Shown here piece after piece: positions 9,656 through 52,300 of a DNA stretch of 64,000 bases. A program made the position numbers and the translations under genes. The stretch is from Bolinopsis microptera (Eukaryota; Ctenophora; Tentaculata; Lobata; Bolinopsidae): assembly GCF_026151205.1 (NCBI RefSeq), contig NC_087075.1:4624359-4688358 (forward strand). The letters are read 5' to 3'. The notes under the pieces are model-generated. The model ran no database searches and had not been told where the DNA came from. It saw only the letters and a list, made by a program, of their open reading frames with translations. Each line of letters starts with the position of its first letter. Positions within the stretch are counted from its first letter, which is position 1.

Positions 9656-9663
9656 TTCCTTTC

Positions 9664-22891: not shown

Positions 22892-25800
22892 GACGCTATG
22901 GCTGAGGACGCTAAGGTGAAGGACACTAAGGTGGAGGACGCTATGGTGAAGGACACTAAGGTGGAGGACACTAAGGTGGAGGACGCTAAGGTGGAGGACG
23001 CTAAGGTGGAGGACACTAAGGTGGAGGACACTAAGGTGGAGGACGCTAAGGTGGAGGACGCTATGGCTGAGGACGCTATGGCTGAGGAAGCTACGGTGGA
23101 GGACACTAAGGTGGAGGACACTAAGGTGGAGGACGCTATAAAGGTGGAGGACGCTAAGGTGGAGGACACTAAGGTGGAGGACACTAAGGTGGAGGACACT
23201 AAGGTGGAGGACGCTAAGGTGGAGGACACTAAGGTGGAGGACACTAAGGTGGAGGACGCTAAGGTGGAGGACGCTAAGGTGGAGGACGCTAAGGTGGAGG
23301 ACACTAAGGTGGAGGACACTAAGGTGGAGGACGCTAAGGTGGAGGACACTAAGGTGGAGGACGCTAAGGTGGAGGACACTAAGGTGGAGGACGCTAAGGT
23401 GGAGGACGCTAAGGTGGAGGACACTAAGGTGGAGGACACTAAGGTGGAGGACGCTAAGGTGGAGGACACTAAGGTGGAGGACGCTAAGGTGGAGGACGCT
23501 ATGGCTGAGGACGCTATGGCTGAGGAAGCTACGGTGGAGGACACTAAGGTGGAGGACACTAAGGTGGAGGACGCTATAAAGGTGGAGGACGCTAAGGTGG
23601 AGGACACTAAGGTGGAGGACACTAAGGTGGAGGACACTAAGGTGGAGGACGCTAAGGTGGAGGACACTAAGGTGGAGGACACTAAGGTGGAGGACGCTAA
23701 GGTGGAGGACACTAAGGTGGAGGACGCTAAGGTGGAGGACGCTATGGCTGAGGAAGCTACGGTGGAGGGCACTTAGGTGGAGGACACTAAGGTGGAGGAC
23801 GCTAAGGTGGAGGACGCTACGGCGGAGGACACTAAGGTGGTGGACGCTATGGCTGAGGACGCTACGGTGGAGGACACTAAGGTGGTGGACACTAAGGTGA
23901 AGGACACTAAGGTGGAGGACACTAAGGTGGAGGACGCTATGGCTGAGGACGCTAAGGTGGAGGACACTAAGGTGGAGGACACTAAGGTGGAGGACGCTAA
24001 GGTGGAGGACGCTAAGGTGGAGGACACTAAGGTGGAGGACGCTACGGTGGAGGACGCTATAAAGGTGAAGGACACTAAGGTGGAGGACACTAAGGTGGAG
24101 GACGCTAAGGTGGTGGACGCTATGGCTGAGGACGCTACGGTGGAGGACACTAAGGTGGTGGACACTAAGGTGAAGGACACTAAGGTGGAGGACACTAAGG
24201 TGGAGGACGCTTAGGTGGAGGACGCTACGGTGGAGGACACTAAGGTGGAGGACGCTATGGCTAAGGACACTAAGGTGGAGGACGCTAAGGTGGAGGTCGC
24301 TACAGCTGAGGACGCTACGGTGGAGGACGCTAAGGTGGAGGACACTACGGTGGAGGACGCTATGGCTGAGGACACTAAGGTGGAGGACGCTAAGGTGGAG
24401 GTCGCTACAGCTGAGGACGCTAAGGTGGAGGACGCTAAGGTGGAGGACACTAAGGTGGAGGACACTAAGGTGGAGGACGCTACGGTGGAGGACACTAAGG
24501 TGGAGGACACTAAGGTGGAGGACGCTATGGCTGAGGACACTAAGGTGGAGGACGCTAAGGTGGAGGACACTAAGGTGGAGGACACTAAGGTGGTGGACAC
24601 TAAGGTGAAGGACACTAAGGTGGAGGACACTAAGGTGGAGGACGCTATGGCTGAGGACACTAAGGTGGTGGACACTAAGGTGGAGGACACTAAGGTGGAG
24701 GACGCTACGGTGGAGGTCGCTACAGCTGAGGACGCTACGGTGGAGGACGCTACGGTGAAGGACACTAAGGTGGAGGACGCTAAGGTGGAGGACGCTAAGG
24801 TGGAGGACACTAAGGTGGAGGACGCTAAGGTGGAGGACACTAAGGTGAAGGACACTAAGGTGGAGGACACTAAGGTGGAGGACACTAAGGTGGAGGACAC
24901 TAAGGTGGAGGACACTAAGGTGGAGGACACTAAGGTGGAGGACACTAAGGTGGAGGACGCTATGGCTGAGGACGCTAAGGTGGAGGACACTAAGGTGGAG
25001 GACGCTATGGCTGAGGACGCTAAGGTGGAGGACGCTAAGGTGGAGGACACTAAGGTGAAGGACGCTAAGGTGGAGGACACTAAGGTGGAGGACGCTATGG
25101 TGGAGGACGCTAAGGTGAAGGACACTAAGGTGGAGGACGCTATGGCTGAGGACGCTAAGGTGGAGGACGCTAAGGTGGAGGACACTAAGGTGAAGGACGC
25201 TAAGGTGGAGGACGCTACGGTGGAGGACACTAAGGTGGTGGACACTAAGGTGAAGGACACTAAGGTGGAGGACACTAAGGTGGAGGACGCTATGGCTGAG
25301 GACACTAAGGTGGTGGACACTAAGGTGGAGGACACTAAGGTGGAGGACGCTACGGTGGAGGTCGCTACAGCTGAGGACGCTACGGTGGAGGACGCTACGG
25401 TGAAGGACACTAAGGTGGAGGACACTAAGGTGGAGGACACTAAGGTGGAGGACGCTACGGTGGAGGACACTAAGGTGGAGGACACTAAGGTGAAGGACAC
25501 TAAGGTGGAGGACACTAAGGTGGAGGACGCTACGGTGGAGGACACTAAGGTGGAGGACACTAAGGTGGAGGACACTAAGGTGGAGGACACTAAGGTGGAG
25601 GACGCTAAGGTGGAGGACACTAAGGTGAAGGACACTAAGGTGGAGGACACTAAGGTGGAGGACACTAAGGTGGAGGACACTAAGGTGGAGGACGCTACGG
25701 TGGAGGACACTAAGGTGGAGGACACTAAGGTGGAGGACACTAAGGTGGAGGACACTAAGGTGGAGGACACTAAGGTGGAGGACACTAAGGTGGAGGACAC

Positions 25801-26794
25801 TAAGGTGGAGGACACTAAGGTGGAGGACGCTACGGTGGAGGACACTAAGGTGGAGGACACTAAGGTGGAGGACACTAAGGTGGAGGACACTAAGGTGGAG
25901 GACGCTATAAAGGTGGAGGACGCTAAGGTGGAGGACGCTAAGGTGGAGGACGCTAAGGTGGAGGACGCTAAGGTGGAGGACGCTAAGGTGGAGGACGCTA
26001 AGGTGGAGGACACTAAGGTGGAGGACACTAAGGTGGAGGACGCTATAAAGGTGGAGGACGCTAAGGTGGAGGACACTAAGGTGGAGGACGCTAAGGTGGA
26101 GGACACTAAGGTGAAGGACACTAAGGTGGAGGACGCTAAGGTGGAGGACACTAAGGTGAAGGACACTAAGGTGGAGGACACTAAGGTGGAGGACACTAAG
26201 GTGGAGGACACTAAGGTGGAGGACGCTACGGTGGAGGACACTAAGGTGGAGGACACTAAGGTGGAGGACACTAAGGTGGAGGACACTAAGGTGGAGGACG
26301 CTATAAAGGTGGAGGACGCTAAGGTGGAGGACGCTAAGGTGGAGGACGCTAAGGTGGAGGACGCTAAGGTGGAGGACGCTAAGGTGGAGGACACTAAGGT
26401 GGAGGACGCTATAAAGGTGGAGGACGCTAAGGTGGAGGACGCTACGGCGGAGGACACTAAGGTGGAGGACGCTATGGCTGAGGACACTAAGGTGGTGGAC
26501 ACTAAGGTGGAGGACACTAAGGTGGAGGACGCTACGGTGGAGGTCGCTACAGCTGAGGACGCTACGGTGGAGGACGCTATGGTGGAGGACACTAAGGTGG
26601 AGGACACTAAGGTGAAGGACGCTAAGGTGGAGGACGCTAAGGTGGAGGACGCTAAGGTGGAGGACACTAAGGTGGAGGACGCTAAGGTGGAGGACGCTAA
26701 GGTGGAGGACGCTACGGTGGAGGACGCTATAAAGGTGGAGGACGCTAAGGTGGAGGACGCTACGGCGGAGGACACTAAGGTGGTGGAGCTCTGA
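22892..26794 (+). repeat. 15-bp minisatellite open as a pentapeptide-repeat frame (VEDTK/VEDAK)
   Basis: About 260 units of the type GTGGAGGACACTAAG run from 22892 to 26790. From ATG 22898 to the TGA at 26792 one frame spans 1299 codons, interrupted only by TAG at 23774 and 24212. The frame reads VED(T/A)K with variants MAEDA, VVDTK, VKDTK, VEVATAED and DAIKVED. Every length change, such as the ATA insertions giving DAIK, is a multiple of three, so there is no frameshift in 3.9 kb. The product would be highly charged with alternating acidic and Lys residues. The ATG context (GCTATGG) is acceptable, but no promoter, intron or conserved flank supports a gene. It may be a repetitive exon or simply a homogenised minisatellite. 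Confidence 0.9.
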
Positions 26795-35200: not shown

Positions 35201-38200
35201 CCCCTTCATACTGGATTTCTAAAACGGTTGTTATAGAATTGTTCGGTGCAGCAGGTCTAGTTGTGGAAATGAAAACATACACCTCCACTCTTGTATAAAA
35301 CATACACCTCCACTCTTGTATAAAACATACACCTCCACTCTTGTATAAAACATACACATCCACTCTTGTACTCTTGTATAAAACATACACCTCCACTCTT
35401 GTATAAAACATACACCTCCACTCTTGTATAAAACATACACCTCCACTCTTGTATAAAACATACACCTCCACTCTTGTATAAAACATACACCTCCACTCTT
35501 GTACTCTTGTATAAAACATACACCTCCACTCTTGTACTCTTGTATAAAACATACACCTCCACTCTTGTACTCTTGTATAAAACATACACCTCCACTCTTG
35601 TACTCTTGTATAAAACAGACACCTCCACTCTTGTACTCTTGTATAAAACAGACACCTCCACTCTTGTACTCTTGTATAAAACATACACCTCCACTCTTGT
35701 ACTCTTGTATAAAACAGACACCTCCACTCTTGTACTCTTGTATAAAACATACACCTCCACTCTTGTACTCTTGTATAAAACATACACCTCCACTCTTGTA
35801 CTCTTGTATAAAACATACACCTCCACTCTTGTATAAAACAGACACCTCCACTCTTGTATAAAACATACACCTCCACTCTTGTATCGTGTGTCTAGATGTA
35901 GCCACATTTAAACACTTCTGCTAACTTCTTCTAACTGATTGTAAATATCTAACTGTTTTCTTTCTGTCCTCTAATTTTCCATAACAGTTCTGTTCAGCTA
36001 TGAAAAGCAGATCACTTACCAAAACACTTTTATGTTCAGCTATGAAAGGTTTAAAAGTGTCCGTAGTAAGATGAGCCACAGGGCTCTCATCCTCCTCAGC
36101 CCAAGTAGTCTCCTCCTTTGTTTCTGCCTCTTTAACATCCTCGGTCGGGTTCTCCAACCATGATATCATACCTGGAGTGTTAGGGGTCAATAAGGGGTCA
36201 ATTACACGGAATGTGAATGATTAGTTAAGTAATTACCTAATTACATTAGATGTAATTAGGTAATTACTGATATTACGTGGAGTATAACGAAGTAATTAAA
36301 GGTCATTATAACTGGGATATGTGGGTCAATGGGTGTGTGGGGTGTAATTATACCGATTGTTATGTAATTATCCCAATTATAAATGATATGGGAAATATTC
36401 TTGACGTAGCGAACTGAACACTTATTATAGTATAGCGTAAGGTTACCAACCATAGCATATTTTGCAAGTATTTGCATATTTTGCATAATTTGCATAGTTT
36501 TAACAAAAGTTGAATTCTACACAGTAAATAAACACATTGTTGTAATACTCAAGGTATTCTAGAAACACTGCATTTTTGTTACTTACTGCTACATAAAGCT
36601 GAAATCTAAAGTTTCAGTACTGGACCAATAAATACAGTTTCACCGCACAGTAGAAAGAAGAAATACCACCTTGACAAGACTGGTCGACTGGAGTTAGAAG
36701 TATCAAAAGCAGTTAGAAGTATAACAAGCAGTTGTGGTTGACGGTCATCTGTCCATCCTTGCACTGATAATCAGCGGAGTTCCACAAGGTACGGTTTTGG
36801 GGCTGATCCTTTTCTTGATTTTCATCAATGATATCGAACATTGTATCATGCACTCTATAATTCGATGTTTTGTTGATGACACTCGCATATCCATTGCTAT
36901 CAAATCAGAGCATGACGTCAAGCTCCTCCAAAAATATCTGCAAAATGTCATTGATTGGTCTGAAAGAAATAATATGGCCCTTCACAAATACAAATTTGAG
37001 TACATGTGTCACAAATTCAACCACCAATATATTCCATTTGTGGTTGAACATTATCAATACTCAGTTTCCAAAGACACTACACTTGAGCCAATACATCAGC
37101 TCAGGGATTTAGGCGTCATAGTGTCAAGTGATCTCTCTTGGTCCCCTCACATACGAGCCAATGCAGATAAAGCTCGCCAAAAAGCATCATGGGTTCTCAG
37201 TGTATTTCACACACGATCTCACTCCATCATGCTGACGCTATACAAATCAATGGTTCGAAGTCTGATTGAATATTGATGTCCATTATGGCATCCCTCAAAA
37301 ATCAGCGATATCCAAGAACTGGAGAGTGTACAGAAAGCATTCACCGCCAGAATATCAGGAATGCGCAATCTCTACTACTGGGATCGCCTGGTCAATCTAT
37401 CTCTGATGTCTCTTCAACGAAGGCGGGAGCGATTCATCATTCTCCATAAGTGGAAAATCCTCCACGGAAAGACCAACAATGATCTGAACGTTCTATTTGT
37501 TTCACGCCCAAGGCTTGGAAACCTTGCAGTAATTCCATCAAAACGTAGAACCAGTTCAACAGCAAACCTCACCTTGTTTGACAACTCATTTGCAGTTCAG
37601 GGACCTAAATTGTGGAATACAATCCCCTACCATCTGAATGGTAATGGTAATCAAATTAAAGATCTGGAGCACTTCAAAGATAAGCTCACAAAGTTCATGT
37701 TTTTTCTCCATGATAAGCCGCCGATCAAGGGGATATACTCCTCCAAATAAGAACTCTCTGCTGTGCTGGCGCAACGAGCGAGACTTTACTTCGCTATGGG
37801 GTGGTCAGAAGATGTGATGGCCCCGTCAAATTTTTACGAAACTCAACATATGTCACATATGTAGGTGATACACAGAATAGTGTGACTACTGAGTGTGTCT
37901 ACTGAGTGTGTCTACTGAGTGTGTCTACTGAGTGTGTCCACTGAGCGTGTCTACTGAGCGTGTCTACTGAGTGTGTCTACTGAGTGTGTCTACTGAGTGT
38001 GTCTACTGAGTGTGTCTACTGAGTGTGTCTACTGAGTGTGTCTACTGAGTGTGTCTACTGAGTGTGTCTACTGAGTGTGTCTACTGAGTGTGTCTACTGA
38101 GTGTGTCTACTGAGTGTGTCTACTGAGTGTGTCTACTGAGTGTGTCTACTGAGTGTGTCTACTGAGTGTGTCTACTGAGTGTGTCTACTGAGTGTGTCTA

Positions 38201-41200
38201 CTGAGTGTGTCTACTGAGTGTGTCTACTGAGTGTGTCTACTGAGTGTGTCTACTGAGTGTGTCTACTGAGTGTGTCTACTGAGTGTGTCTACTGAGTGTG
38301 TCTACTGAGTGTGTCTACTGAGTGTGTCTACTGAGTGTGACTACTGAGTGTGTCTACTGAGTGTGTCTACTGAGTGTGTCTACTGAGTGTGTCTACTGAG
38401 TGTGTCTACTGAGTGTGTATACTGAGTGTGTCTACTGAGTGTGTCTACTGAGTGTGTCTACTGAGTGTGTCTACTGAGTGTGTCTACTGAGTGTGTCTAC
38501 TGAGTGTGTCTACTGAGTGTGTCTACTGAGTGTGTCTACTGAGTGTGTCTACTGAGTGTGTCTACTGAGTGTGTCTACTGAGTGTGTCTGCTGAGTGTGT
38601 CTGCTGAGTGTGTCTGCTGAGTGTGTCTACTGAGTGTGTCTACTGAGTGTGTCTACTGAGTGTGTCTACTGAGTGTGTCTACTGAGTGTGTCTACTGAGT
38701 GTGTCTACTGAGTGTGTCTACTGAGTGTGTCTACTGAGTGTGTCTACTGAGTGTGTCTACTGAGTGTGTCTACTGAGTGTGTCTACTGAGTGTGTCTACT
38801 GAGTGTGTCTACTGAGTGTGACTACTGAGTGTGTCTACTGAGTGTGTCTACTGAGTGTGTCTACTGAGTGTGTCTACTGAGTGTGTCTACTGAGTGTGTC
38901 TACTGAGTGTGTCTACTGAGTGTGTCTACTGAGTGTGTCTACTGAGTGTGTCTACTGAGTGTGTCTACTGAGTGTGTCTACTGAGTGTGTCTACTGAGTG
39001 TGTCTACTGAGTGTGTCTACTGAGTGTGTCTACTGAGTGTGTCTACTGAGTGTGTCTACTGAGTGTGTCTACTGAGTGTGTCTACTGAGTGTGTCTACTG
39101 AGTGTGTCTACTGAGTGTGTCTACTGAGTGTGTCTACTGAGTGTGTCTACTGAGTGTGTCTACTGAGTGTGTCTACTGAGTGTGTCTACTGAGTGTGTCT
39201 ACTGAGTGTGTCTACTGAGTGTGTCTACTGAGTGTGTCTACTGAGTGTGTCTACTGAGTGTGACTACTGAGTGTGTCTACTGAGTGTGTCTACTGAGTGT
39301 GTCTACTGAGTGTGTCTACTGAGTGTGACTACTGAGTGTGTCTGCTGAGTGTGTCTACTGAGTGTGTCTACTGAGTGCGTCTACTGAGTGCGTCTACTGA
39401 GTGCGTCTACTGAGTGTGTCTACTGAGTGCGTCTACTGAGTGTGTCTACTGAGTGTGTCTACTGAGTGTGTCTACTGAGTGTGTCTACTGAGTGTCTACT
39501 GAGTGTGTCTACTGAGTGTGTCTACTGAGTGTGTCTACTGAGTGTGTCTACTGAGTGTGTCTACTGAGTGTGTCTACTGAGTGTGTCTACTGAGTGTGTC
39601 TACTGAGTGTGTCTACTGAGTGTGTCTACTGAGTGTGTCTACTGAGTGTGTCTACTGAGTGTGTCTACTGAGTGTGTCTACTGAGTGTGTCTACTGAGTG
39701 TGTCTACTGAGTGTGTCTACTGAGTGTGTCTACTGAGTGTGTCTACTGAGTGTGTCTACTGAGTGTGACTACTGAGTGTGTCTACTGAGTGTGTCTACTG
39801 AGTGTGTCTACTGAGTGTGACTACTGAGTGTGTCTACTGAGTGTGTCTACTGAGTGTGTCTACTGAGTGTGTCTACTGAGTGTGTCTACTGAGTGTGTCT
39901 ACTGAGTGTGTCTACTGAGTGTGTCTACTGAGTGTGACTACTGAGTGTGTCTACTGAGTGTGTCTACTGAGTGTGTCTACTGAGTGTGTCTACTGAGTGT
40001 GTCTACTGAGTGTGTCTACTGAGTGTGTCTACTGAGTGTGTCTACTGAGTGTGTCTACTGAGTGTGTCTACTGAGTGTGTCTACTGAGTGTGTCTACTGA
40101 GTGTGTCTACTGAGTGTGTCTACTGAGTGTGTCTACTGAGTGTGTCTACTGAGTGTGTCTACTGAGTGTGTCTACTGAGTGTGTCTACTGAGTGTGTCTA
40201 CTGAGTGTGTCTACTGAGTGTGTCTACTGAGTGTGTCTACTGAGTGTGTCTACTGAGTGTGTCTACTGAGTGTGTCTACTGAGTGTGTCTACTGAGTGTG
40301 TCTACTGAGTGTGTCTACTGAGTGTGTCTACTGAGTGTGTCTACTGAGTGTGTCTACTGAGTGTGTCTACTGAGTGTGTCTACTGAGTGTGTCTACTGAG
40401 TGTGTCTACTGAGTGTGTCTACTGAGTGTGTCTACTGAGTGTGTCTACTGAGTGTGTCTACTGAGTGTGTCTACTGAGTGTGTCTACTGAGTGTGTCTAC
40501 TGAGTGTGTCTACTGAGTGTGTCTACTGAGTGTGTCTACTGAGTGTGTCTACTGAGTGTGTCTACTGAGTGTGTCTACTGAGTGTGTCTACTGAGTGTGT
40601 CTACTGAGTGTGTCTACTGAGTGTGTCTACTGAGTGTGTCTACTGAGTGTGTCTACTGAGTGTGTCTACTGAGTGTGTCTACTGAGTGTGTCTACTGAGT
40701 GTGTCTACTGAGTGTGTCTACTGAGTGTGTCTACTGAGTGTGTCTACTGAGTGTGTCTACTGAGTGTGTCTACTGAGTGTGTCTACTGAGTGTGTCTACT
40801 GAGTGTGACTACTGAGTGTGTCTACTGAGTGTGTCTACTGAGTGTGTCTACTGAGTGTGTCTACTGAGTGTGTCTACTGAGTGTGTCTACTGAGTGTGTC
40901 TACTGAGTGTGTCTACTGAGTGTGTCTACTGAGTGTGTCTACTGAGTGTGTCTACTGAGTGTGTCTACTGAGTGTGTCTACTGAGTGTGTCTACTGAGTG
41001 TGTCTACTGAGTGTGTCTACTGAGTGTGTCTACTGAGTGTGTCTACTGAGTTATTAACGACAGCAGAATATTATATTCGGTTTTATTAAACATCGTCCAT
41101 TGGTCTGGATATTCCAAGTGGGAGTCCGACACGTGACATTGATTAACCAATCAGCGTCCAGCACTGACCAATCAAAAGATGAATAATTATCACGTGACTG

Positions 41201-44200
41201 CCTCCCTATACCAGCATCTTAACCACAGTATAATCATGTGTAACTGACAGTTTTATTAGACCCCGGTTACTATTATGCTGTGTCTAATCTACCGCTATAT
41301 AATATTATGAATATTATTATTAAGTTATTATTAATATTATGTATATTATGTATATTATTATAATATAATATATTATATTATATATTTGGTGCTGTGTTAT
41401 TAACCTTTTGTAGATTCTATTCGTGTGTGTAACATTATTGTAATGTATTATTGGTACACAACAGTGTGTACCGTGATTGTCAAGTTCGTTATAATAATGT
41501 ATCCTTATTTAATCTACTATTATAATATTATGCACTACTTAAACAACTAATACACTATTTTATTTATTTTGCACTATTTAATCTACTGTTATGTTTTGCA
41601 AGAGTCCACTGTTGGGAGAAGATTAATATTAATTAATTAATAATATTAAGCTCTTTCAACTATATACATTTACTACTATACTCCTCGTCAACAAATCTAA
41701 TAGATTTGTACTGTTGTAATTAATTTAAATAGAACGGAAATAAAAACACACTGTAAAGATTAATACCGTCAACCATGTGGGTCTACACATTGAGTCAGTT
41801 ACTAATTCTGAAAACACCCTCATCTGGTAGCACTTAAGTCTAAACCCACGTTGTTGGGTTGCTAGCTTTGGCCTTTTAATCAATAGATTACCCTGAAACT
41901 CTGAAACCTTCTATAGAATAATCTAGAACTTGATATGGGCTAACACAATATCATAACACATTGCACCACATGATCAGAAACAATAGCAGTGAGCAGCTAA
42001 TTCTAAAAGCTTTAAGGGGGATAGTCTTAACCTGCCCTTTAACTTACCGGATCTTACCGGATCTTACCACTTCTTACCAGAGTTAACCGCAACTTGCCCC
42101 AACTACCTCTAACTAACCGTAACTAGCCACTAATGTAATAACACTGGTCCATCACAAGATTTAGACCAGTGCATATAAATATGTGTGCTGCTTTTAGCAA
42201 CTTAGAGTTTTACAAGAGTTTTAGTTAGCTGCGACTGAGCTCTCAGAATGACCTAGTGCTCGACCGACCTATACTACTGGTTATGCGTCCATGCTCTCAG
42301 TCCAGCTCCCTTCTCCAGATATGAAGTTTTGTTAAAGACACATTGATGTAACCTTCACTTCTACTATTTAAACATTTTATTAAAGAGTGTCTTAAGTGTC
42401 CCAACATCAAGGCTGTTATAAAAGAACCCTAAAATAGAGGACAGTTAACAACGTCCCACAACTTTGGATTATTCTTGTCCATTTTATTCTGGTTTCTAGA
42501 AGTTTTCATCTCCAAACTCAACTGTTACTTTAAAAAATCTAATTTAAATTAGTTACTTTATTTAATTCAGAGATCTAGTTAATGTGATAGTTAGTGATAT
42601 TATCTTACTTGAACAGTTAAATAGTAGTAGTGTATTTAAAGTGCTGTGATTTAATTAATTAAGATACTTACATAAAATGTGTCGATTAAAAAGTTCTGTG
42701 AAACTAAAAAAGGTAAGGAGGAAATTGTATAGTAATCAGTAGTCAATGACTAGACATGACTATACAATATATCATAGTTACTACACAACATAGCATAGTT
42801 ACTATAATATAATATGATATAATACGTATATATATAGTTACTATACAGCAATGGAGGTGGAGCATGCAGTTAGTAATTATGTGTGTAACACTATAGTTAA
42901 TATACAAGATAAAAGTATTTCAGGTTAAGTAGACGGAGTAGTTTACAAACTAGCTGTTTACAAACTAGCTGTTTACAAACTAGCTGTTTACAGACTATCT
43001 GTTTACAAACTAACTTTTTACAAACTAGCTGTTTACAGACTAGCTGTTTACAAACTAGCTGTTTACAAACTAGCTGTTTACAGACTAGCTGTTTACAAAC
43101 TAGCGGTTTACAAACTAGCTGTTTACAGACTAGCTGTTTACAAACTAGCTGTTTACAAACTAGCTGTTTACAAACTAGCTGTTTACAGACTAGCTGTTTA
43201 CATACTAGCTGTTTACAAACTAGCTGTTTACCTAACAAGGACCCTGACGCTCTAACAGGCAGCTTCCCATTATTTGCTATGTGTTTAAACACTGAACAGC
43301 TACAAATTATTACTCAACATTAACACATTATTTAATAGCTACTTATTGTAAATAGTAAAATAAAATTCACCATCTTTAGTCCTCTGTCCAGTAAACTTGT
43401 ATTTGAAAGTTCCCTTCTCAAAGTATAGTATAGTAGGGAAGCTGGACACGTTGTACTCTTGAGATGGACCTGTTCCTTGTGAACCGTCCGAGTTAACACC
43501 TACCAGCAGTGCACGTCCTGCGGAGGAGGGAGCTTTACAAATAAGGTTATGAATTTTACATTTTGTAAGAATATCTAATTTGGGTCATAGACTAGAATAA
43601 CCATGTCATAACCATGTCATAACCATGTAAAACCATGTCATAACCATGTTAAACCATGTCATAACCATGTCATAACCATGTCATAACCATGTCATAACCA
43701 TGTCATAACCATGTCATAACCATGTCATAACCATGTCATAACCATGTCATAACCATGTCATAACCATGTCATAAACATGTCATAACCATGTCATAAACAT
43801 GTCATAACCATGTCATAACCATGTCATAACCATGTCATAACCATGTCATAACCATGTCATAACCATGTCATAACCATGTCATAACCATGTCATAACCATG
43901 TCATAACCATGTCATAACCATGTCATAACCATGTCATAACCATGTCATAACCATGTCATAACCATGTCATAACCATGTCATAACCATGTCATAACCATGT
44001 CATAACCATGTCATGATTTGATTTGAAACTTTTACAAAATAGCAAGTATACAAATGTACAGCAATTCGAACAAACATATAAAATAGGCCGAAATGTATAA
44101 ATGCTAAAAAGCGTGGGTCAGTGAAACAAGTACAGAGGACAACTTTCAGAACAGGAGTTTTTTGGCCGCCCAAAGTCTCAATAACATCACCTCCACCTAG

Positions 44201-47200
44201 TAATAAATTATGAAACGTGAAAAGTGTGAAACAATCAAATAATAATGTATTTATATAATATAATTGTCTCTCAAATACAGATAACGTCCGTAAACTCTTA
44301 AAATACTCCTACAAGTACATATTATACTGATCGGTGTCCGAGAAACATGAATTACGTCATCATGGTGCCTTCTTAACCCGGCTACAGACCTTCCCGTTAC
44401 GGATGTAGTGGTCGAGATGAGTCTGTTCAGTCCTCTTCTTCTTCAGGTCAGTTACCACGTTCTTCCTTGCTGCACGCTCTTCACTGGATCTATCAGGACA
44501 GATCCATACATCTTTGTGTGCATCAGCCATCCTCAGTCTCCCTGTTTTCATCAGAATCTGATGAACTGCTGTTGAGCTTGGGACGGTGATCTTGACTGGT
44601 CGGATAGCCGTGATACCTGGCCTCTTCCAGCCGACTCTAGTCGCTTCAAAATGAGGTTTCTCCCCGATCTCCTCCAATACTGCGGTTACCAGAGCTGGAA
44701 GCTGTTCTCCATCCTCTTCTTTCAGTCCAAACACTATCAGATTCTTGCTCCTGTCCTCCTCTGCAGCCACACTCTTCATTACATTCTTCAGAATTTTACT
44801 GTTGCAGACCGCGCCATTTGTGCTGTTCTTTTGTACCGCGGCACTGTAGCTCTTAATCCCTGTCTCCACCGTTGTTTGTACTGTCTCTTCAACTGACGTC
44901 TTAAACAACTGTAGTTGTTCGTCCTTCTGCACTAGCAACTGGTCCTGCAACCTGACCATCTTTTCCTTGTCTGCTAGTGCTTCCGTCTTGAGGCACTCAA
45001 CGATTTCCATCATAGCGCTCATCTGACTACTCTGCCGTCGTACGAGGTCTGCTGCTTGCATAACCCATTCTGCCATATACCTTTTATAGATAGACGGAGA
45101 CATGAGTATTTCTTGGTCCATATCTCCACGAATTTCGAAGTTTTCTAATTTCAGTTGTCTTGCCATCGAAGTGAACCATCTATCAGCACAGCCCTCTACA
45201 TCTTCTTTTTCTTCATAGTTGAAATCCTTGAGTTTCTTCTGAGATCGGGTCAAATGTAAATCATCCTCCGTGGTGTACATTGTATAGTAATGTACAAGTA
45301 TACACACGCAAAGGCTTACTACGCGGTAGCAGCAAACTGAACTTATCGCAAAGTTACAAAAGATAAGAGAGCTCGATAATTGCAACGTAAGCTACACACA
45401 CTACACACTACTACATAACCATGTCATAACCATGTCATAACCATGTCATAACCATGTCATAACCATGTCATAACCATGTCATAACCATGTCATAACCATG
45501 TCATAACCATGTCATGACCATGTCATAACCATGTCATAACCATGTCATAACCATGTCATAACCATGTCATAACCATGTCATTATCAGAATATTTAGATCA
45601 TTTGTTACTATTAATAATACTTCTCACCTTTCATAGCAGTAGCAGCTCCGTTAAACTCAGGCTTCATTCGTTTACAATGTCCACACCAAGGTGCATAGAA
45701 CATGGTCAATATGGGCAGCTCTGTCTTTCTCAGTAACCTGTTTATAATTTAATTATGAAGTGGAAATCTGGTTCGTTTGATATTTCACACATTACATTTA
45801 GCATACTTGATTTAAACAGCAGATTTAAAGAGAGCTGTTCTGTAAACCACGTTTGTGATTCAGACTGTTAACCATTCTACCACTTTCAATATTAAACTGT
45901 CAATTTGCTTATTGATGAAGAAGAAGAAGACTGACCGTTTGAAGGATTGATAATCGAGGTGCATTACATCTTTAGAAGCTTCCTCTTCAGACCAAGGAAC
46001 GTCTCCCATCGGATCTTGTAAGAACAACACCTGCGAGTTAGAGTGAAGTTAGAGTGAAGTTAGAGTGAAGTTAAAGTGAAGTTAGAGTGAAGTTAGAGTG
46101 AAGTTAGAGTGAAGTTAGAGTGAAGTTAGAGTGAAGTTAAAGTGAAGTTAGAGTGAAGTTAGAGTGAAGTTAGAGTGAAGTTAGAGTGAAGTTAGAGTGA
46201 AGTTAGAGTGAAGTTAGGGTGAAGTTAGAGTGAAGTTAGAGTGAAGTTAGAGTGAAGTTAGAGTGAAGTTAGAGTGATTTGTAGAGTTTCAGATGGTAGT
46301 TTATCCGAATAAATCACTTATGTGTTAACACATTTCATGAAGAGAATGGAATATCATGTATGGTTTATAAATTGGAAAATTGAAGCTCAAATAAAATGAA
46401 CCAATCATACCATAGACTCCTCTGTCTGTTTTCTGTCGTACTCCTTGTTGAATTCTCCGTTGTTGTAATGGTTGAGAAGGTAAGGCTTTGGTGACATCTG
46501 AAATTAAAATTTTGTTATAAGGTATTATACTATAATCCTAATAACCTTATTAGGCTAATAAGGTCACTTTAAATAACGATTAAAAGCTCGGGTAAAATAA
46601 TATCATTTCTAATATTGGTATCACCTTGAACTTTGTTACATGGAATGGGATAGCAAACATGAAATGAGATCATAATGTCAAACCTTTTTACACATTTTTA
46701 AACACATTTTGGCAGCATCAGTAACCATAATGTCAAACCTTGAGCTTTATACACATTTTGGCAGCATCAGTAATCATAATGTCAAACCTTGAGCTTTTTA
46801 CACATTTTGGCAGCATCAGTAATCATAATGTCAAACCTTGAGCTTTTTAAACATTTTGGCAGCCTCAGTAATCATAATGTCAAACCTTGAGCTTTTTACA
46901 CATTTTGGCAGCATCAGTAATCATAATGTCAAACCTTGAGCTTTATACACATTTTAGCAGCATCAGTAATCATAATGTCAAACCTTGAGCTTTATACACA
47001 TTTTGGCAGCATCAGTAATCATAATGTCAAACCTTGAGCTTTTTACACATTTTGGCAGCCTCAGTGCAGTCGACACTGATCACCGTTGCTCTTCCTTTCA
47101 TCTTTATAGACACGCTGTCAAGCACCTTCAATAACTGACTGGACTGCTTACTGTCCTGTGAATAAATATTACTTTTACTTACTTTTATTATATAATAATA

Positions 47201-47595
47201 ATTATTATATATTACTAATAAATCATTCACGTGTGATATTTATTTATTTATTATCTATTTATTTGTACTGTTTTCACAAAATTTTGGATGCTAGCCACAG
47301 TTCAGTGCAATATACATTTTTATTCAATCAATAGAGAAAAAAACCAATGAGACCTAGTTACTTAGTTAGTTGTGTGTGAAATAATTAACTTCATTTTTAA
47401 CAGCAATTTAACATATATATTCAGCTCCCCTACTCTATTATCTACCTTTGTAAAAAGTGCAAGAACATTTTTCTTTGTTCGGAGCTCTTTTTTCCAGTCT
47501 TTTAAATCTTTTATTTGAACCAGCTCACTTTTGCTTGCTTTCTTGGATGTTACAGCAAATGTAAGGCAGCACAACACCGCTACTTTCAGTAACAT
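31977..47595 (-). CDS. PDIA5: PDIA5-like protein disulfide isomerase, 13 exons, 629 residues
   Basis: An ER oxidoreductase of the PDI family that forms and rearranges disulfides. Exon joins (minus): 47595-47446, 47155-47033, 46497-46411, 46030-45936, 45737-45628, 43517-43371, 36171-36020, 34786-34631, 34422-34276, 33570-33412, 33070-32918, 32599-32436, 32223-31977. Phases match at every junction and total 1890 nt. Layout: signal peptide about 1-17; non-catalytic b-type domain about 20-120; thioredoxin domains with APWCGHC at Cys170/173, 296/299 and 420/423; an added domain about 515-625 with CSTC at 551-554; KDEL end. The first four domains follow PDIA5 order. Human PDIA5, as I recall, is about 519 residues and ends KEEL, so the fifth domain is extra. 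All three CxxC of the main body are CGHC. Confidence 0.93.
32436..32599 (-). CDS. PDIA5: PDIA5-like exon 12 (extra domain, first part)
   Basis: Acceptor ATTTTCAG/TCGATG, donor TACAA/GTTAGT, 164 nt, ends in phase 2. Encodes a Ser/Pro/Gly linker, [19 protein letters not shown] and SPAFMLYYK, the first half of a fifth thioredoxin-like fold not found in PDIA5 as I know it. Confidence 0.85.
32868..32917 (-). repeat. 11-bp repeat made from the exon 11 donor site
   Basis: On the coding strand GTGAGGGGTTT is repeated about four to five times, starting exactly at the GT of the exon 11 donor. Each unit begins with a donor-like GTGAGG. Confidence 0.8.
32918..33070 (-). CDS. PDIA5: PDIA5-like exon 11
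   Basis: Acceptor CGTCCAG/GTAATG, donor GTCAAG/GTGAGG, 51 codons. Encodes [20 protein letters not shown], then FPTLVYL and [11 protein letters not shown]. The donor itself is the first unit of an 11-bp repeat. Confidence 0.92.
33412..33570 (-). CDS. PDIA5: PDIA5-like exon 10 (third CGHC)
   Basis: Acceptor CATTTCAG/GAGAGT, donor AATAAG/GTTGGT, 53 codons. Encodes [19 protein letters not shown] and [17 protein letters not shown] with Cys420 and Cys423. Confidence 0.94.
34276..34422 (-). CDS. PDIA5: PDIA5-like exon 9
   Basis: Acceptor TTGTTCAG/AGTTTC, donor GAACAG/GTTTCT, 49 codons. Encodes [11 protein letters not shown] (cis-Pro strand) and a proline-rich linker EPPPPSPEE typical between thioredoxin domains of this protein. 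Confidence 0.92.
34631..34786 (-). CDS. PDIA5: PDIA5-like exon 8 (second CGHC)
   Basis: Acceptor CTCCTAG/GTGATG, donor GTTAAG/GTACAT, 52 codons. Encodes [18 protein letters not shown] with Cys296 and Cys299, then [19 protein letters not shown]. Confidence 0.93.
35273..35884. repeat. 25/33-bp compound minisatellite in PDIA5 intron 7
   Basis: The basic unit contains ATAAAACATACACCTCCACT and CTTGT (25 bp). A longer form adds ACTCTTGT (33 bp). Short units lie at both edges and a block of about ten long units in the centre. Long open frames on both strands are a by-product of the 33-bp period. Confidence 0.93.
36020..36171 (-). CDS. PDIA5: PDIA5-like exon 7
   Basis: Acceptor CACTCCAG/GTATG, donor GTTTTG/GTAAGT, 152 nt. 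Encodes MISWLENP, an acidic linker and [20 protein letters not shown], the start of the second thioredoxin domain. It is separated from exon 6 by a 7.2-kb intron. Confidence 0.92.
36734..37753 (+). pseudogene. 5'-truncated CR1/Jockey-like LINE reverse transcriptase
   Basis: It begins within the RT at [20 protein letters not shown], followed by FVDDT where YADDT is expected, [18 protein letters not shown], then a nonsense TGA at 37274-37276. The same frame continues as [15 protein letters not shown] and a C-terminal WNTIP block to 37750. It is antisense to the PDIA5-like gene, within its largest intron. It lacks the endonuclease and the first RT motifs and has one in-frame stop, so it is dead. 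It is not a copy of the 9-15 kb LINE: the residues differ widely. Confidence 0.8.
37880..41050. repeat. 13-bp minisatellite, about 244 copies
   Basis: TGTCTACTGAGTG is repeated head to tail for 3.17 kb in PDIA5 intron 6, with remarkably few substitutions (scattered GTGACT, CTGCTG and GTGCGT variants). One 11-bp unit near 39490 is the only length change noticed. The period is not a multiple of 3. Confidence 0.97.
41051..42940. other. Non-coding part of PDIA5 intron 6
   Basis: AT-rich (especially 41280-41400), with a CCAAT/CACGTG patch near 41150-41195 and a degenerate CTTACCGGAT duplication near 42045-42070. No gene or exon is supported. Confidence 0.5.
42941..43232. repeat. 15-bp minisatellite, about 19 copies
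   Basis: GTTTACAAACTAGCT is repeated with A/G alternation at one position (ACAAAC/ACAGAC), giving a partial higher-order pattern. It lies in PDIA5 intron 6, about 140 bp past the exon 6 donor. The Lys-Gln-Leu-Val-Cys antisense frame is an artefact. Confidence 0.93.
43371..43517 (-). CDS. PDIA5: PDIA5-like exon 6
   Basis: Acceptor CTCCGCAG/GACG, donor AAAGATG/GTGAAT, 147 nt. Encodes [20 protein letters not shown], including the cis-Pro that faces the active site in thioredoxin folds. Confidence 0.92.
43597..44014. repeat. 11-bp minisatellite, left block
   Basis: CATAACCATGT is repeated about 38 times in PDIA5 intron 5. The same unit resumes at 45414-45581, so one array has been split by the insertion between. 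Confidence 0.95.
44015..45413 (-). mobile_element. ORF1-only retroelement inserted in a minisatellite
   Basis: About 1.4 kb of unique sequence interrupts the CATAACCATGT array. On the minus strand it has a 5' leader, one intact ORF (45280-44360) and a 3' tail ending TTTCAAATCAAATCATG. No RT is present. The layout recalls HAL1-type half-LINEs, which keep ORF1 only. Because the target is itself repetitive, a target duplication cannot be told from array units. Confidence 0.65.
44360..45280 (-). CDS. LINE ORF1p-like protein, 306 residues
   Basis: ATG at 45280 to TGA at 44360; upstream codons lack another ATG. Domains: N-terminal acidic/basic region 1-75; coiled coil about 80-130 ([20 protein letters not shown]); linker; an RRM-like domain about 178-262 starting [15 protein letters not shown] with VKITVPSS and DVWICPDRS; a basic C-terminal segment 263-306 ([15 protein letters not shown]). 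Coiled coil, RRM and C-terminal domain is the order of L1-type ORF1 proteins, which bind RNA as trimers. The ORF is fully open, unlike the other transposon genes here. It lies on the same strand as its host gene, inside intron 5. It could be a domesticated intronic gene, but a recent half-LINE copy is simpler. Confidence 0.75.
   Translation of the reverse strand: MYTTEDDLHLTRSQKKLKDFNYEEKEDVEGCADRWFTSMARQLKLENFEIRGDMDQEILMSPSIYKRYMAEWVMQAADLVRRQSSQMSAMMEIVECLKTEALADKEKMVRLQDQLLVQKDEQLQLFKTSVEETVQTTVETGIKSYSAAVQKNSTNGAVCNSKILKNVMKSVAAEEDRSKNLIVFGLKEEDGEQLPALVTAVLEEIGEKPHFEATRVGWKRPGITAIRPVKITVPSSTAVHQILMKTGRLRMADAHKDVWICPDRSSEERAARKNVVTDLKKKRTEQTHLDHYIRNGKVCSRVKKAP
45414..45581. repeat. 11-bp minisatellite, right block
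   Basis: About 15 more copies of CATAACCATGT, ending about 46 bp from the exon 5 donor. Continuation of the array at 43597. Confidence 0.94.
45628..45737 (-). CDS. PDIA5: PDIA5-like exon 5 (first CGHC)
   Basis: Acceptor ATAAACAG/GTTACTG, donor ATGAAAG/GTGAGA, 110 nt, enters in phase 2 and leaves in phase 1. Encodes [19 protein letters not shown] with catalytic Cys170 and Cys173. The equivalent human site, as I recall, is CSMC, so this copy has the standard PDI motif. Confidence 0.93.
45936..46030 (-). CDS. PDIA5: PDIA5-like exon 4
   Basis: Acceptor CTCGCAG/GTG, donor AAACG/GTCAGT, 95 nt, ends in phase 2. Encodes [20 protein letters not shown], the linker and first strand of the first thioredoxin domain. 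The acceptor is the end of an 11-bp minisatellite. Confidence 0.9.
46035..46277 (-). repeat. 11-bp minisatellite abutting the exon 4 acceptor
   Basis: On the coding strand TTCACTCTAAC is repeated about 22 times and runs straight into TCGCAG/GTG, the acceptor of exon 4. Each unit carries CTAAC, a good branch-point match, and pyrimidines. A few units have TTTAAC. Confidence 0.93.
46411..46497 (-). CDS. PDIA5: PDIA5-like exon 3
   Basis: Acceptor TTTCAG/ATGTCACC, donor TCTATG/GTATGA, 29 codons, phase 0. Encodes [19 protein letters not shown], the end of the b-type domain. Too short for most ORF finders; supported by phase and homology. Confidence 0.9.
46684..47079 (-). repeat. 49-bp repeat copying the exon 2 end and donor, 7-8 copies
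   Basis: Units start at 46737, 46786, 46835, 46884, 46933, 46982 and 47031, exactly 49 bp apart, with a diverged copy before. The last (47031-47079) contains the true end of exon 2. On the coding strand each unit has TGTGTAAAAAGCTCAAG/GTTT, the exon end plus donor. Confidence 0.93.
47033..47155 (-). CDS. PDIA5: PDIA5-like exon 2
   Basis: Acceptor TTATTCACAG/GACAG, donor CTCAAG/GTTTGA, 41 codons, phase 0. It encodes [17 protein letters not shown], the conserved middle of the non-catalytic domain. The last about 40 nt and the donor are copied seven times downstream (see the 49-bp repeat). Confidence 0.92.
47446..47595 (-). CDS. PDIA5: PDIA5-like exon 1 (signal peptide)
   Basis: ATG at 47595 opens [17 protein letters not shown], a hydrophobic secretion signal with likely cleavage after TS. 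A start of the b-type domain follows (VLALFTK). Donor TACAAAG/GTAGATA, phase 0, 50 codons. Confidence 0.92.
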
Positions 47596-47916: not shown

Positions 47917-49213
47917 TTACTAGGGGTAAGCCCCCCTAAAACGTCACCTGTTTTTTGGGCCCAGATTGCCGAGTTAGGGCTAAATTTACAGGGTTCTGAA
48001 GTGTCTAGGAATAATATTTAAACCTTTTTCTAGCCTGCCAGGAAGATTTGGAAATTTGAAAATAAAATCAGGTACAATTTTTTGACGTTGAAATGGAGTC
48101 ACTTTTAAAACACCACCCCTAAAATGTCAACTCTATATGTGTGATAATTACAAAATGTACAAGAGGCTTGATTTATCTTTTGTCACTAGTACTATTTGTT
48201 TTGTCTTATTAAAACATTAAGCTACTTGAAAACATTCACTCACTAAAGGAAGTACCTCAAAACCGTAATCACCCCCTAAAATGTCACGTGCACCACCCCT
48301 AAAACGTCAGCTAAAACAGGTTGTGTAGCACTCAGAATGTTGCTCAATTATTAATTTTAACCACTTCTGGGACAAATATAACCTATTTCTGAGAGGTGTC
48401 AACCAGAATTTCTCTCTCTGTTGAAAAAAAATGGTGAAATAATGGTCAATTTACTTTTTGTGACATTTTGGGGACTTTTTTTTTGAATACCCAGAACTTA
48501 CGGCAAAACAGTAACTCAGTCAACAAAATTAATACCTGTAGTTAGATTATTTAGTTATAAACTAACAATTGGCACAAAAAATGGATTCAATGTGATTTTA
48601 GCCTTGTGCAAATTGCATGTTTTAATTGCATTTTTTGGGATTTTTAACATCATCCTGCATCTTGGCAATTTTAGTGACCTGTAGTTAACTAAGCCAACCC
48701 AGTAATCAATCTGACCTTCTCCATAGACTAGATTTGACTGTTTTTAGCAAAATTGAATGTCAAAAACTACGGTTTTTGGTACTTACTAGTTTATGGTAAA
48801 CCTATGATATGCCCCCTAAAATGTCATTTTTTTCTCCCCTAAAATGTCAAATTTGTATTTTGTTCGCATGGTGTGCGATAATAGCTCTTGTTTTGGCACT
48901 TGTTAATTATTAACATCAACTATTAACGAAATGTGAGTATGCATTGCATCTTAGGAAAAGCCTGAGTAATTTGATCAGGTTAAAATGACATTTTAGGGGG
49001 GATAATTAGACATTTTAGGGGATGTTTATTGCGATTAATAAAATAAAACTAATTCCTTGAGCTGCCAAAGCTTTCCAATATTACCATTAGATGCTAAATA
49101 TGATGTTTAATAGGCTGGTACTTTTATTTTATGGTGCTTGTAGTCTCAAAGCCAGAATCTGATCAAATGACATTTTAGGGGGCGACCAGGTGAAATTTTA
49201 GGAGAGGGTAGTA
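47917..49213. mobile_element. Palindromic element built of CCCCTAAAATGTCA motifs
   Basis: CCCCTAAAAYGTCA occurs six times in plus orientation in the left part (near 47933, 48115, 48271, 48294, 48812, 48835) and four times inverted on the right (48983, 49008, 49165, and a decayed one at 49190). The outer ends match as TTACTA...TAAAA-GTCACCTG inverted. No ORF. Probably a non-autonomous transposon with subterminal binding-site arrays; class unknown. Confidence 0.55.
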
Positions 49214-50239: not shown

Positions 50240-52300
50240 TTTATAAGTGTTTTATTTATTATTATTATTAATCAACTATTTACAGCAAACACAAGATAAT
50301 AGAAATTAAATCATAAAATCGAGTGGCCGAGTAGTCTCGACTCACCCATAACTTCTCCAAAGACGTCTATCATGAGCTTTGTACACTAAATCGTTGAAAT
50401 TACTTAAACTAAATCTTTTATTTACAATCACAATAATTTGTTTTGTCATAATGTCTTTTAATAATAAATCAAATAAATTTGAACGAGGTCTGCCCCTCCT
50501 TCCTTTGTAGTCAAAACATCCTAAACATGCAAATCTGAAAGATAAGAAGGCGGGAGTGTCATCACCGCTTCTGAGAACGTGCCCAAGCATCTTCCATCTT
50601 GCTTTCTTGATCCTTTCAGTAAGGGGTCTGACATTACATCTCTTATATAAATTCTCGTTACTGATAACCGTAGGCCAATAGGTGTTGATTATCTGTCTCA
50701 GATGCTTCCTTTGAAGAACGTCGACAGATGCCATTACGGTTTCGGGAGCAGCCCAGCTGCTACAGTTATACAACAACACTGAAGTGACAAGAGCTTCGTA
50801 CAGCTTCAGCTTTCTACTCTCACTGATCTGAACAGAACTATTCAACCAGACTTTCTTGTAGGTGTAGAAGGCAACATTGGCTTTGTTGCGTCTGTTGACA
50901 ATATCTCTTTCTGAGCAGAGCTTTGATCCTAATAGCACTGACTCTCGCCACTCTTCATCTCCTCTAATTTTATTGCCATGGGCATCTAAAGCATCTGTAT
51001 CTGCCAAATACACTCTTGTAAACACCGTCTTTGATTCGTTAACAAAGAGACTCCAATCCTTTAGTATATCACTGGCAATCTCTAGTACATAGTATCTTCA
51101 CCAGGCTCTGACCATCTTCACTCAGAAGCTCAGCATCGTCAGCATAGGCGGACTCTAACGGGAGGCCTCTATCAGAGACTGGGGGGTTCGGTCTAGGAAT
51201 CGTGACACTGATCACGGCTCTGATGTGATTCAGGGCACCGGCAAGGGTCAATGTAAACACTTTACCTGCCAGACTGTCTCCCTGGTAAGCGCCAATATTA
51301 ATCACAAATTCACCAGACTCAGATCTGTTGACCGTCACCTTGAGCTTTGTATTTGAGAGGAGGTACTGAACTAGGCGAATGTCGTCTCTAGAGCATCCTG
51401 CATCAATGAGGAGGTTGATGATGGTCTGTCTGCGGATAGTATTAAACGCAGCGGTCATGTCAATGTTGATTTTACTATACTCAAACTCGCGCCTGGTAAC
51501 CACTGATGTCAACATTCTCTGAGACCATACCAGGTCAGCACAACTGTGACCCTGCTTGTATGCCGCCTGCCAAGGTCCAGTGTACATATCAACGTGGTAA
51601 TTGATTCTGTTCAAGGCTACGAGGGATAGGACTTTTCTAGTTCCATTTAGCAATGTGAGGGGCCGGATAGACTTTATCGGACCTCGGGGTTTTCCTGGCT
51701 TCTGAAGGGGTGTCAGGATACCTTCTCCAATAGCTGGGATGTATGTGTTGGTCTCAAAGGAGAGATTATAGATCCTAGCCAACTCACAGTGGAGGGGATA
51801 TCCAGCAGCTTTCATTAGCTCATTAGGTATACCGTCAGGGCCACACGCTCTACCGGATTTCAGCTTCATAACAGCACGGCCAACTTCTTCAGGTGTTATG
51901 GGACAGAGGAGGCTTCCAGGAGGGTCTATGAATGCTGGGAGGTGGGGTTCATCTTTGTCATTGAACTCATTATTAAAGTATTCTTTAATAGCTTCTGCTT
52001 TTAATGAGTCAGAACCTAAGGTGTTCCCGTCTGCATCGTGGACAGTCACTCCGTCTTTCTTCATCCTATTCCTACACTGGGCCAAAGTTCTATTCGCTTC
52101 AAACATGCTTCTGCAGCTGTCGGTGTTGTTGATGACATCTACTAGGGCGTTAGCAGTGGCCTCGTTGATGGATTTCAACCTCTTTTTGATGGTACGTTTG
52201 AGATGGTTGATACTTTTTCTGAGGTCACTCCTGTCGCTTATCCCTGTGAGACTACATTCTTGCTGAAGGGACTTTCTAAGTGTTTTAACTTATAAAAAAC
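50240..52300 (-). mobile_element. Second non-LTR retrotransposon, probably 5'-truncated
   Basis: The minus-strand RT gene is followed by a 3' UTR ending in a TAATAATAATAAATAAA tail near 50250, a common LINE 3' end. The 5' limit lies between 52266 and about 52700. Confidence 0.65.
50342..52266 (-). pseudogene. Non-LTR reverse transcriptase of uncertain clade, one frameshift
   Basis: Motifs on the minus strand are SGRACGPDGIPNELMKAAG, GILTPLQKPGKP, IRPLTLLNGTRKV, a QAAYKQGHS block, INIDMTAAFNTIRR (catalytic Asp), IGAYQGDSLAGKVFTLTLAG and ESAYADDAELLSEDGQ (YADD pair). The frame shifts by one at about 51075 and continues as DILKDWSLFVNESKT and a C-terminus with LLYNCSSWA, LQRKHLRQI, ARWKMLGHVLR and KGRRGRPR, stopping at 50342. 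It differs strongly from the LINE at 9-15 kb. The GHVLR and GRRGRP boxes resemble RTs that often pair with a restriction-like or other nuclease, but none is visible. The clade is not resolved. Confidence 0.75.

What the first reader, a model, noticed from the sequence alone, without database searches (positions are those of the whole stretch)
46684..47079. Tandem array whose unit is an exon end plus its 5' splice site
Seven exact 49-bp steps copy the last about 40 nt of exon 2 and its donor (CTCAAG/GTTTGA) into the following intron. Seen directly. Each decoy could compete as a donor. As 49 is not a multiple of 3, use of any decoy would shift the frame. The gene therefore carries a ladder of potential mis-splicing sites that must be ignored or used for regulation.
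Basis: partly seen in the sequence, partly recalled or inferred. Interest (0 to 1): 0.75.

Follow-up and report, generated by a model that had tools for sequence, protein, structure and literature searches.

The report
Repeated splice donors after one exon
A gene for a protein-folding enzyme carries seven spare copies of the end of its second exon and of the cutting signal behind it; the spare copies are probably ignored, and the same arrangement turned up at several other exons of this genome, which makes it a natural test of how cells choose among identical splice sites.

Summary
The array is real. On the minus strand it starts inside exon 2 of a PDIA5-like gene and repeats 33 nt of exon end plus 15 nt of intron plus 1 nt. 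There are eight AAG|GTTTGA donors, one real and seven decoys, in six exact 49-bp steps and one of 55. Two details of the finding need correcting. The exon share is 33 nt, not about 40. Decoys 3 and 6 would keep the frame, but every decoy isoform stops at once (...CKKLKV-stop), because TGA follows the donor. Real site and decoys are identical from -3 to +6, so U1 pairing cannot tell them apart. Best reading: a junction-spanning tandem duplication that grew as a minisatellite and is tolerated because the exon-edge donor is used. Which donor is used was not shown; no RNA data were available. The array is not a one-off: 4 of 169 exon ends sampled by homology carry duplicated exon-end donors, and donor-motif ladders are about six- to eightfold commoner genome-wide than the reversed motif. 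Within wide limits this agrees with random array birth plus tolerance. The kind is known (human IFI6; minisatellites at human exon-intron boundaries); I found no report of such a frequency in the papers I could search.

The parts
47434..47595 (-). exon 1 of PDIA5-like gene, coding part (from ATG)
   Evidence: open frame [10 protein letters not shown]..., joins exon 2 in frame
47033..47155 (-). exon 2; its last 33 nt (47065-47033) are the exonic part of the repeat unit
47027..47035 (-). real donor AAG|GTTTGA (last exon base 47033)
46669..47065 (-). whole array footprint: exon-end plus donor units, 49 bp each, last step 55 bp
   Evidence: the 46669 end is read by eye
46978..46986 (-). decoy donor 1 (AAGGTTTGA)
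46929..46937 (-). decoy donor 2
46880..46888 (-). decoy donor 3 (keeps frame length, still stops)
46831..46839 (-). decoy donor 4
46782..46790 (-). decoy donor 5
46733..46741 (-). decoy donor 6 (keeps frame length, still stops)
46678..46686 (-). decoy donor 7, AAAAAG|GTTTGA, after a 55-bp step
46411..46497 (-). exon 3
   Evidence: joined protein aligns to human PDIA5
45936..46030 (-). exon 4
45628..45737 (-). exon 5 (thioredoxin CGHC motif)

Best explanation
A short tandem duplication once copied a 48-bp stretch spanning the exon 2/intron 2 boundary of a PDIA5-like gene (33 nt exon, 15 nt intron, with one extra base at the join). Slippage or unequal exchange then grew it to eight donors. Because the first copy still forms an intact exon end and donor, all further copies lie in the intron and are removed with it. 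The spliceosome must use the exon-edge (5'-most) donor for the protein to be made; decoy use ends the protein at residue 96 and should be cleared by nonsense-mediated decay. The array is therefore a tolerated by-product of a genome that forms minisatellites very freely, and the same has happened at other exon ends. Shown: the sequence, the gene model, the stops, the identity of real and decoy sites, the recurrence. Inferred: that only the first donor is used, that decay clears mis-spliced RNA, how the array arose, and near-neutrality.
For: Array anatomy and the unit crossing the junction. Spliced exons 1-5 give one open frame that matches human PDIA5 (4i6x, E 5.8e-20), aligned across the exon 2/3 join. 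All seven decoy isoforms stop after KLKV. All eight donors are the same 9-mer; GTTTG starts 8 of 76 inferred introns, so it is an ordinary donor here; three U1 gene copies looked at, of 10 matches, have the canonical 5' end. Recurrence: of 169 exon right ends tested (of 197 domain matches), 4 carry an exon-copying duplicated donor (L018 two copies, L024 five, L027 five, L066 at least 13). Donor ladders three deep: 8,523 matches against 1,062 for the reversed motif, while single motifs are 65,696 against 49,355. By arrays in the capped lists, 6 in the first 2.51 Mb of contig 1 against 5 in the first 12.76 Mb (binomial p 0.004). Of 26 ladders fetched, 5 start at exons with family support, among them a homeobox exon at ...[11 protein letters not shown] with 21 donors and a cathepsin D-like exon with 10. 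Unit length is a multiple of three in 3 of 16. Uniform birth of arrays at the intron density seen (23 in 38.9 kb), with a window of about 28 bp, predicts about 1.7% of exon ends, near the 2.4% found.
Against: No RNA data: use of the first donor is not shown. From memory, in vitro work with duplicated identical 5' splice sites in mammalian extracts often favours the intron-proximal copy, which would predict decoy use. The donor-motif enrichment could mean that donors are favoured birth places, so random birth is not established; 4 of 169 has a wide interval (0.65-5.9%), and the neutral estimate is rough and would be lower if short-unit arrays were left out. In the 76 fully inferred introns, 0 of 76 donors were duplicated in this way, while 405 of 4,714 interior intron positions recur nearby. 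13 of the 26 fetched ladders were not tied to any exon or splice site, and 2 of the 26 lie at acceptors, not donors.
Confidence: 0.72

Rival explanations
1. Regulated unproductive splicing: the decoys are used at a set rate to send part of the PDIA5 RNA to decay, tuning enzyme level, with dose set by copy number.
For: Every decoy gives a stop one codon after the junction; donors are identical from -3 to +6 and thus able to compete.
Against: No RNA evidence. The in-frame TGA comes from the original donor itself (GTTTGA), so it needs no selection. The same kind of array sits at unrelated genes with different read-through outcomes, two of them (L005, L085) with no stop in the stretch read.
Confidence: 0.08
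2. The decoys act as a U1 landing strip that strengthens definition of exon 2 or guards the intron against premature polyadenylation.
For: The real donor is weaker than the median here (rank 17 of 76 from the bottom) and eight U1 sites lie within about 360 nt.
Against: Strong donors (CAGGTAAGT) carry ladders too, so weakness is not a common factor. Nothing here tests U1 binding.
Confidence: 0.07
3. Splice junctions are preferred birth places of tandem arrays in this genome (for example through short matches between donor-like exon words and the donor, or through breaks in transcribed DNA), rather than hit at random.
For: Six- to eightfold excess of donor ladders over the reversed motif against 1.33-fold for single sites; in L070, L075 and L079 the exon holds a donor-like word one unit upstream of the donor.
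Against: The homology sample (4 of 169) is close to the rate that random birth predicts. 0 of 76 inferred donors were of this kind. At least 2 of the 26 fetched ladders lie at acceptors and 13 at nothing recognised.
Confidence: 0.15
4. Assembly error or collapsed repeat.
For: Tandem arrays are hard to assemble (general knowledge).
Against: Single match in the assembly (N stretches and skipped words limit this), variant units in an irregular order, and other arrays of the same build elsewhere.
Confidence: 0.03

Closest known systems
Human IFI6 (6-16, G1P3) minisatellite with multiple splice donors (Turri et al. 1995; title seen in reference lists; paper not held)
   Same: A minisatellite whose units supply splice donors. 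PMC4526556 says two downstream repeat units are used as donor sites, giving three mRNA species (passage).
   Different: From memory, the IFI6 unit is 12 bp and lies at the end of exon 2. Here the unit is 49 bp, carries 33 nt of exon, and every extra donor use ends the protein. Use of several donors is not shown here.
Minisatellites at exon-intron boundaries of human duplicated genes (PMC2812944, 2009; abstract and passages)
   Same: Internal tandem repeats, on average 30-bp units repeated four times, some lying at exon-intron boundaries and altering splicing; 27 intron modifications reported.
   Different: Those are young human paralogues, often with the repeat retained in an alternative transcript; here the genes sampled are conserved families (dynein, myosin, PDIA5) in another animal.
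Intron gain by tandem duplication of an AGGT segment (Rogers model; ATP2A1; potato RdRp, PMC4974935; abstract and passages)
   Same: Tandem duplication that multiplies splice signals.
   Different: Here the intron already exists and the unit spans its 5' end; no new acceptor or intron is made.

Membership tests
Minisatellite spanning a splice donor (IFI6 type) | Head-to-tail units, each with a donor-like site, beginning at a real exon end | tested here: met
Minisatellite spanning a splice donor (IFI6 type) | More than one unit used as donor in transcripts | not testable with these tools
   no RNA reads available
Intron gain by tandem duplication (Rogers model) | Duplicated segment is exonic and supplies both GT and AG of a new intron | tested here: not met
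   unit contains 15 nt of existing intron; the acceptor of intron 2 lies outside the array, next to exon 3 (46497)
Introner or dispersed intron element | Same sequence in many unrelated introns | tested here: not met
   the array matches one place only in the 264.65-Mb assembly (the search skips very common words)
Decay-coupled (poison) alternative splicing | Alternative site introduces a premature stop | tested here: met
   all seven decoy isoforms stop at residue 96
Decay-coupled (poison) alternative splicing | Alternative site is used and regulated | not testable with these tools
   no RNA data
PDIA5 (protein disulfide isomerase A5) | N-terminal domain matching PDIA5 followed by a thioredoxin domain with CGHC | tested here: met
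   4i6x E 5.8e-20 over residues 27-145; Pfam Thioredoxin 4.8e-17; only exons 1-5 were joined, the rest of the gene was seen as fragments

The most novel reading that the evidence does not exclude
In this genome (probably the comb jelly Bolinopsis microptera) about one exon end in forty carries a ladder of exon-copied donors. If it has 50,000 or more internal exons (not counted here), over a thousand exons present the spliceosome with two to dozens of identical donors in a row, including in a homeobox and a cathepsin D-like gene, and the spliceosome follows a position rule: take the copy at the exon edge and ignore the rest. That would be a natural, massively parallel experiment on choice among equal splice sites.
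Probability: 0.42. Interest if true: 0.75.

Novelty: new member of a known kind. Interest (0 to 1): 0.58.

Why it matters
To my knowledge, how the spliceosome picks one donor among identical neighbours has mostly been studied with artificial duplications. This genome offers natural ladders at conserved genes, where the productive choice is known from the protein. Reading which rungs appear in RNA would test position rules, exon definition and the cost of decoys directly. It also suggests that copy number at exon edges can change without changing the protein, if the rule holds.

Tried and rejected
RNA folding of exon 2 plus array, to see whether decoys are hidden: the stretch folds less well than all 100 shuffles (z +4.1), so no sign of sequestration. 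An early impression that junctions are hot spots was weakened by the homology sample and the neutral estimate; kept as a rival. An interim count in my notes (2 of about 166) was replaced by 4 of 169 after an automated test.

Rows set aside. Of 197 domain matches (52, 72 and 73), 169 were fetched and tested (70 dynein, 30 thioredoxin, 69 myosin); 28 were not, among them single-exon hits and the four in the window's own gene. Right-end hits in intron arrays or simple repeats (L011, L012, L016, L019, L022, L026, L037, L043, L047, L050) were set aside by eye as not exon-copying; L043 is a GTTT microsatellite at the exon end and is the least clear. On the left-end side I saw no clear exon-copying acceptor among 169; L022 (array overlapping the domain match) and L051 are ambiguous. 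The pattern searches did show two acceptor ladders (L007, L072). Of 88 inferred introns, 12 with poor scores were dropped before the 76 were used.

Literature. Searches for this phenomenon in comb jellies or for donor ladders in general showed no report beyond the human cases named; only open-licence papers are searchable, and for most hits only the listing was seen. Organism name is an inference: 13 large contigs of 15-26 Mb in 264.65 Mb fit the 265 Mb and 13 chromosomes given for B. microptera in Table 1 of PMC11797021 (passages); against it, that table gives 346 scaffolds and the assembly here has 232 contigs, and Mnemiopsis leidyi (248 Mb, 13 chromosomes, same paper) is the nearest alternative.

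Full report
What is there. On the minus strand the window holds a PDIA5-like gene. Its first five coding exons are 47595-47434, 47155-47033, 46497-46411, 46030-45936 and 45737-45628, and joined they give one open frame of 192 residues. The best solved relative is human PDIA5 (4i6x, E 5.8e-20), whose alignment runs through the exon 2/exon 3 join; the CGHC motif lies in exon 5. At the end of exon 2 a 49-bp repeat begins (TRF 46697-47065, 7.5 copies, 96%).

The unit. The second copy shares 33 nt of exon end with the first, intact one. The unit goes on through GTTTGACATTATGAT, the first 15 nt of the intron, plus one T, and then re-enters exon-like sequence. After the last copy the sequence continues into different intron DNA (by eye). 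AAGGTTTGA occurs eight times: six steps of 49 bp, then one of 55. So there are one real donor and seven decoys.

What a decoy would do. I built each isoform. Decoys 3 and 6 add 147 and 294 nt and so keep the frame length, contrary to the finding's wording; but in all seven the codon after GTT is TGA, and the protein ends at residue 96 as ...CKKLKV. The stop is part of the donor sequence itself.

Can decoys compete? I inferred introns from neighbouring domain matches in dynein, thioredoxin-family and myosin genes; 76 of 88 passed a score cut. GTTTG opens 8 of the 76. A weight matrix from these 76 ranks AAGGTTTGA 17th from the bottom; inside the same introns 30 other sites in 38,925 bp, 0.77 per kb, score at least as high. 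Ten U1 matches are present, and the three copies looked at begin ATACTTACCTG. Real site and decoys are the same nine letters, so any choice must rest on position or wider context. Folding gives no sign that decoys are hidden.

Not a single case. The array sequence itself was found once in the assembly. But arrays of the same build recur. A pattern of three AGGTRNGT sites 10-40 bp apart gave 8,523 matches against 1,062 for the reversed pattern, while single sites gave 65,696 against 49,355. Counted as arrays in the capped lists for contig 1: 6 in 2.51 Mb against 5 in 12.76 Mb (p 0.004). With nine-letter donors the contrast is 451 against 0 (single sites 2,463 against 1,212) and 158 against 27.

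What the ladders sit on. I fetched 26 of them: 6 and 20 chosen. Five begin at an exon end with family support: L075 (homeodomain 4.4e-23 across the join), L085 (aspartyl protease 8.9e-5; cathepsin D chains in the PDB 3.3e-6), and, below the curated cut-offs, L070 (WD40-like, 1e-4), L078 (DPH2, 2.1e-7) and L087 (Sushi, 0.0026). Six more end an open frame but have no family hit at 0.01 or were not searched (L003, L005, L068, L069, L074, L079; L005 resembles L087 by eye). Two lie at acceptors: L007 (copine, 1.5e-4, below cut-off, exon on the other strand) and L072 (by open frame). Thirteen I could not place (L002, L004, L006, L071, L073, L076, L077, L080-L084, L086), three of which (L076, L077, L084) reach the edge of the fetched piece or nearly so.

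A less biased rate. In loci fetched for domain matches I tested 169 exon right ends (of 197 matches) for a donor whose flanking 16-mer recurs downstream. Four are exon-copying donor repeats: L018 (two copies, 49 bp), L024 (five, 32 bp), L027 (five, 30 bp) and L066 (at least 13, 40 bp, running off the piece). That is 2.4%, 95% interval 0.65-5.9. Among 169 left ends I saw no clear exon-copying acceptor; L022 and L051 are ambiguous (by eye). In the 76 inferred introns themselves 0 of 76 donors and 0 of 76 acceptors were of this kind, while 405 of 4,714 interior intron positions and 6 of 1,901 interior exon positions recur nearby.

Reading. Arrays cover 10.3% of the inferred intron bases, 23 arrays in 38.9 kb. 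If they arise anywhere, and an array crossing a junction survives only when its first copy keeps the exon intact, roughly 23/38,925 times 28 bp, or 1.7%, of exon ends should carry one. This is my rough estimate; the 28 bp comes from typical unit length less the 10 exon bases asked for, and short-unit arrays make it an overestimate. Observed 2.4% agrees, so neither a strong cost of decoys nor a strong preference for junctions is needed. Unit length is a multiple of three in 3 of 16 arrays, not different from one third (p 0.29), as expected if decoys do not matter. Of the 12 arrays read through in an assumed frame, 10 meet a stop within 12 codons of the first donor, while L005 and L085 show none in the three units read.

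What is known. IFI6 in humans is the nearest named case: its minisatellite supplies several splice donors (title of Turri 1995 in reference lists; a passage in PMC4526556 says two downstream units are used). PMC2812944 (abstract and passages) reports minisatellites at exon-intron boundaries in human duplicated genes. The AGGT duplication model of intron gain (PMC4974935, abstract and passages) is related but makes new introns. I found nothing on such ladders in comb jellies nor on genome-wide rates, within an open-licence library.

Species. The assembly has 264.65 Mb and 232 contigs, 13 of them of 15-26 Mb. PMC11797021 gives 265 Mb and 13 chromosomes, but 346 scaffolds, for Bolinopsis microptera. 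I take it as probable, not proven.

Verdict. The single array is a new member of a known kind. What lifts it above routine is that the same structure seems to occur at a percent level of exons, which would let one of splicing's basic choices be read from nature. Whether only the first rung is used remains to be measured.

Noticed in passing
window 46036-46277: An 11-bp repeat (22 copies, minus-strand unit with CTAAC) lies 5 nt from the acceptor of exon 4 of the same gene, so most copies offer a branch-site-like word; it fills about 64% of intron 3.
   Followed up: partly
L012 5402-7634: A 26-bp unit repeated 86 times, many copies reading like branch site plus pyrimidines plus CAG, runs up to a dynein exon start; a CTAAC-rich array also precedes an exon in L034.
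   Followed up: partly
window 43597-44014 and 45414-45581: Two arrays of the same 11-bp unit (ATAACCATGTC) lie on either side of a long open frame (44360-45391) that by eye resembles a retroelement first ORF, as if an element had inserted into one array.
   Followed up: no
L085 from about 512: A cathepsin D-like exon end with ten donors at 45-bp steps whose unit reads open in frame (VSFIKEPGYTFVAAK), so decoy use would add 15 residues per unit rather than a stop.
   Followed up: partly
L005 from about 784: 35 donors at 34-bp steps after a CCP-like exon; three units read through without a stop and return to the exon's own frame.
   Followed up: partly
window 22904-26787 and 37879-41051: Very large short-unit arrays: 15 bp x 257, with long open frames on both strands, and 13 bp x 244.
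   Followed up: no
window 47933-49204: The phrase CCCCTAAAAYGTCA occurs 11 times here with up to 2 mismatches (8 exact), first mostly on the plus, then on the minus strand, against 0.9 expected in the whole window; it looks like the two halves of an inverted-repeat element upstream of the gene.
   Followed up: partly
window 9074-14665, 36725-37750, 50342-52289: Open frames that by eye resemble endonuclease and reverse transcriptase of LINE-type elements.
   Followed up: no
L006 and L082: Two loci on different contigs carry the same 28-bp donor-like ladder beside what look, by eye, like copies of one methyltransferase-like exon on the other strand.
   Followed up: no
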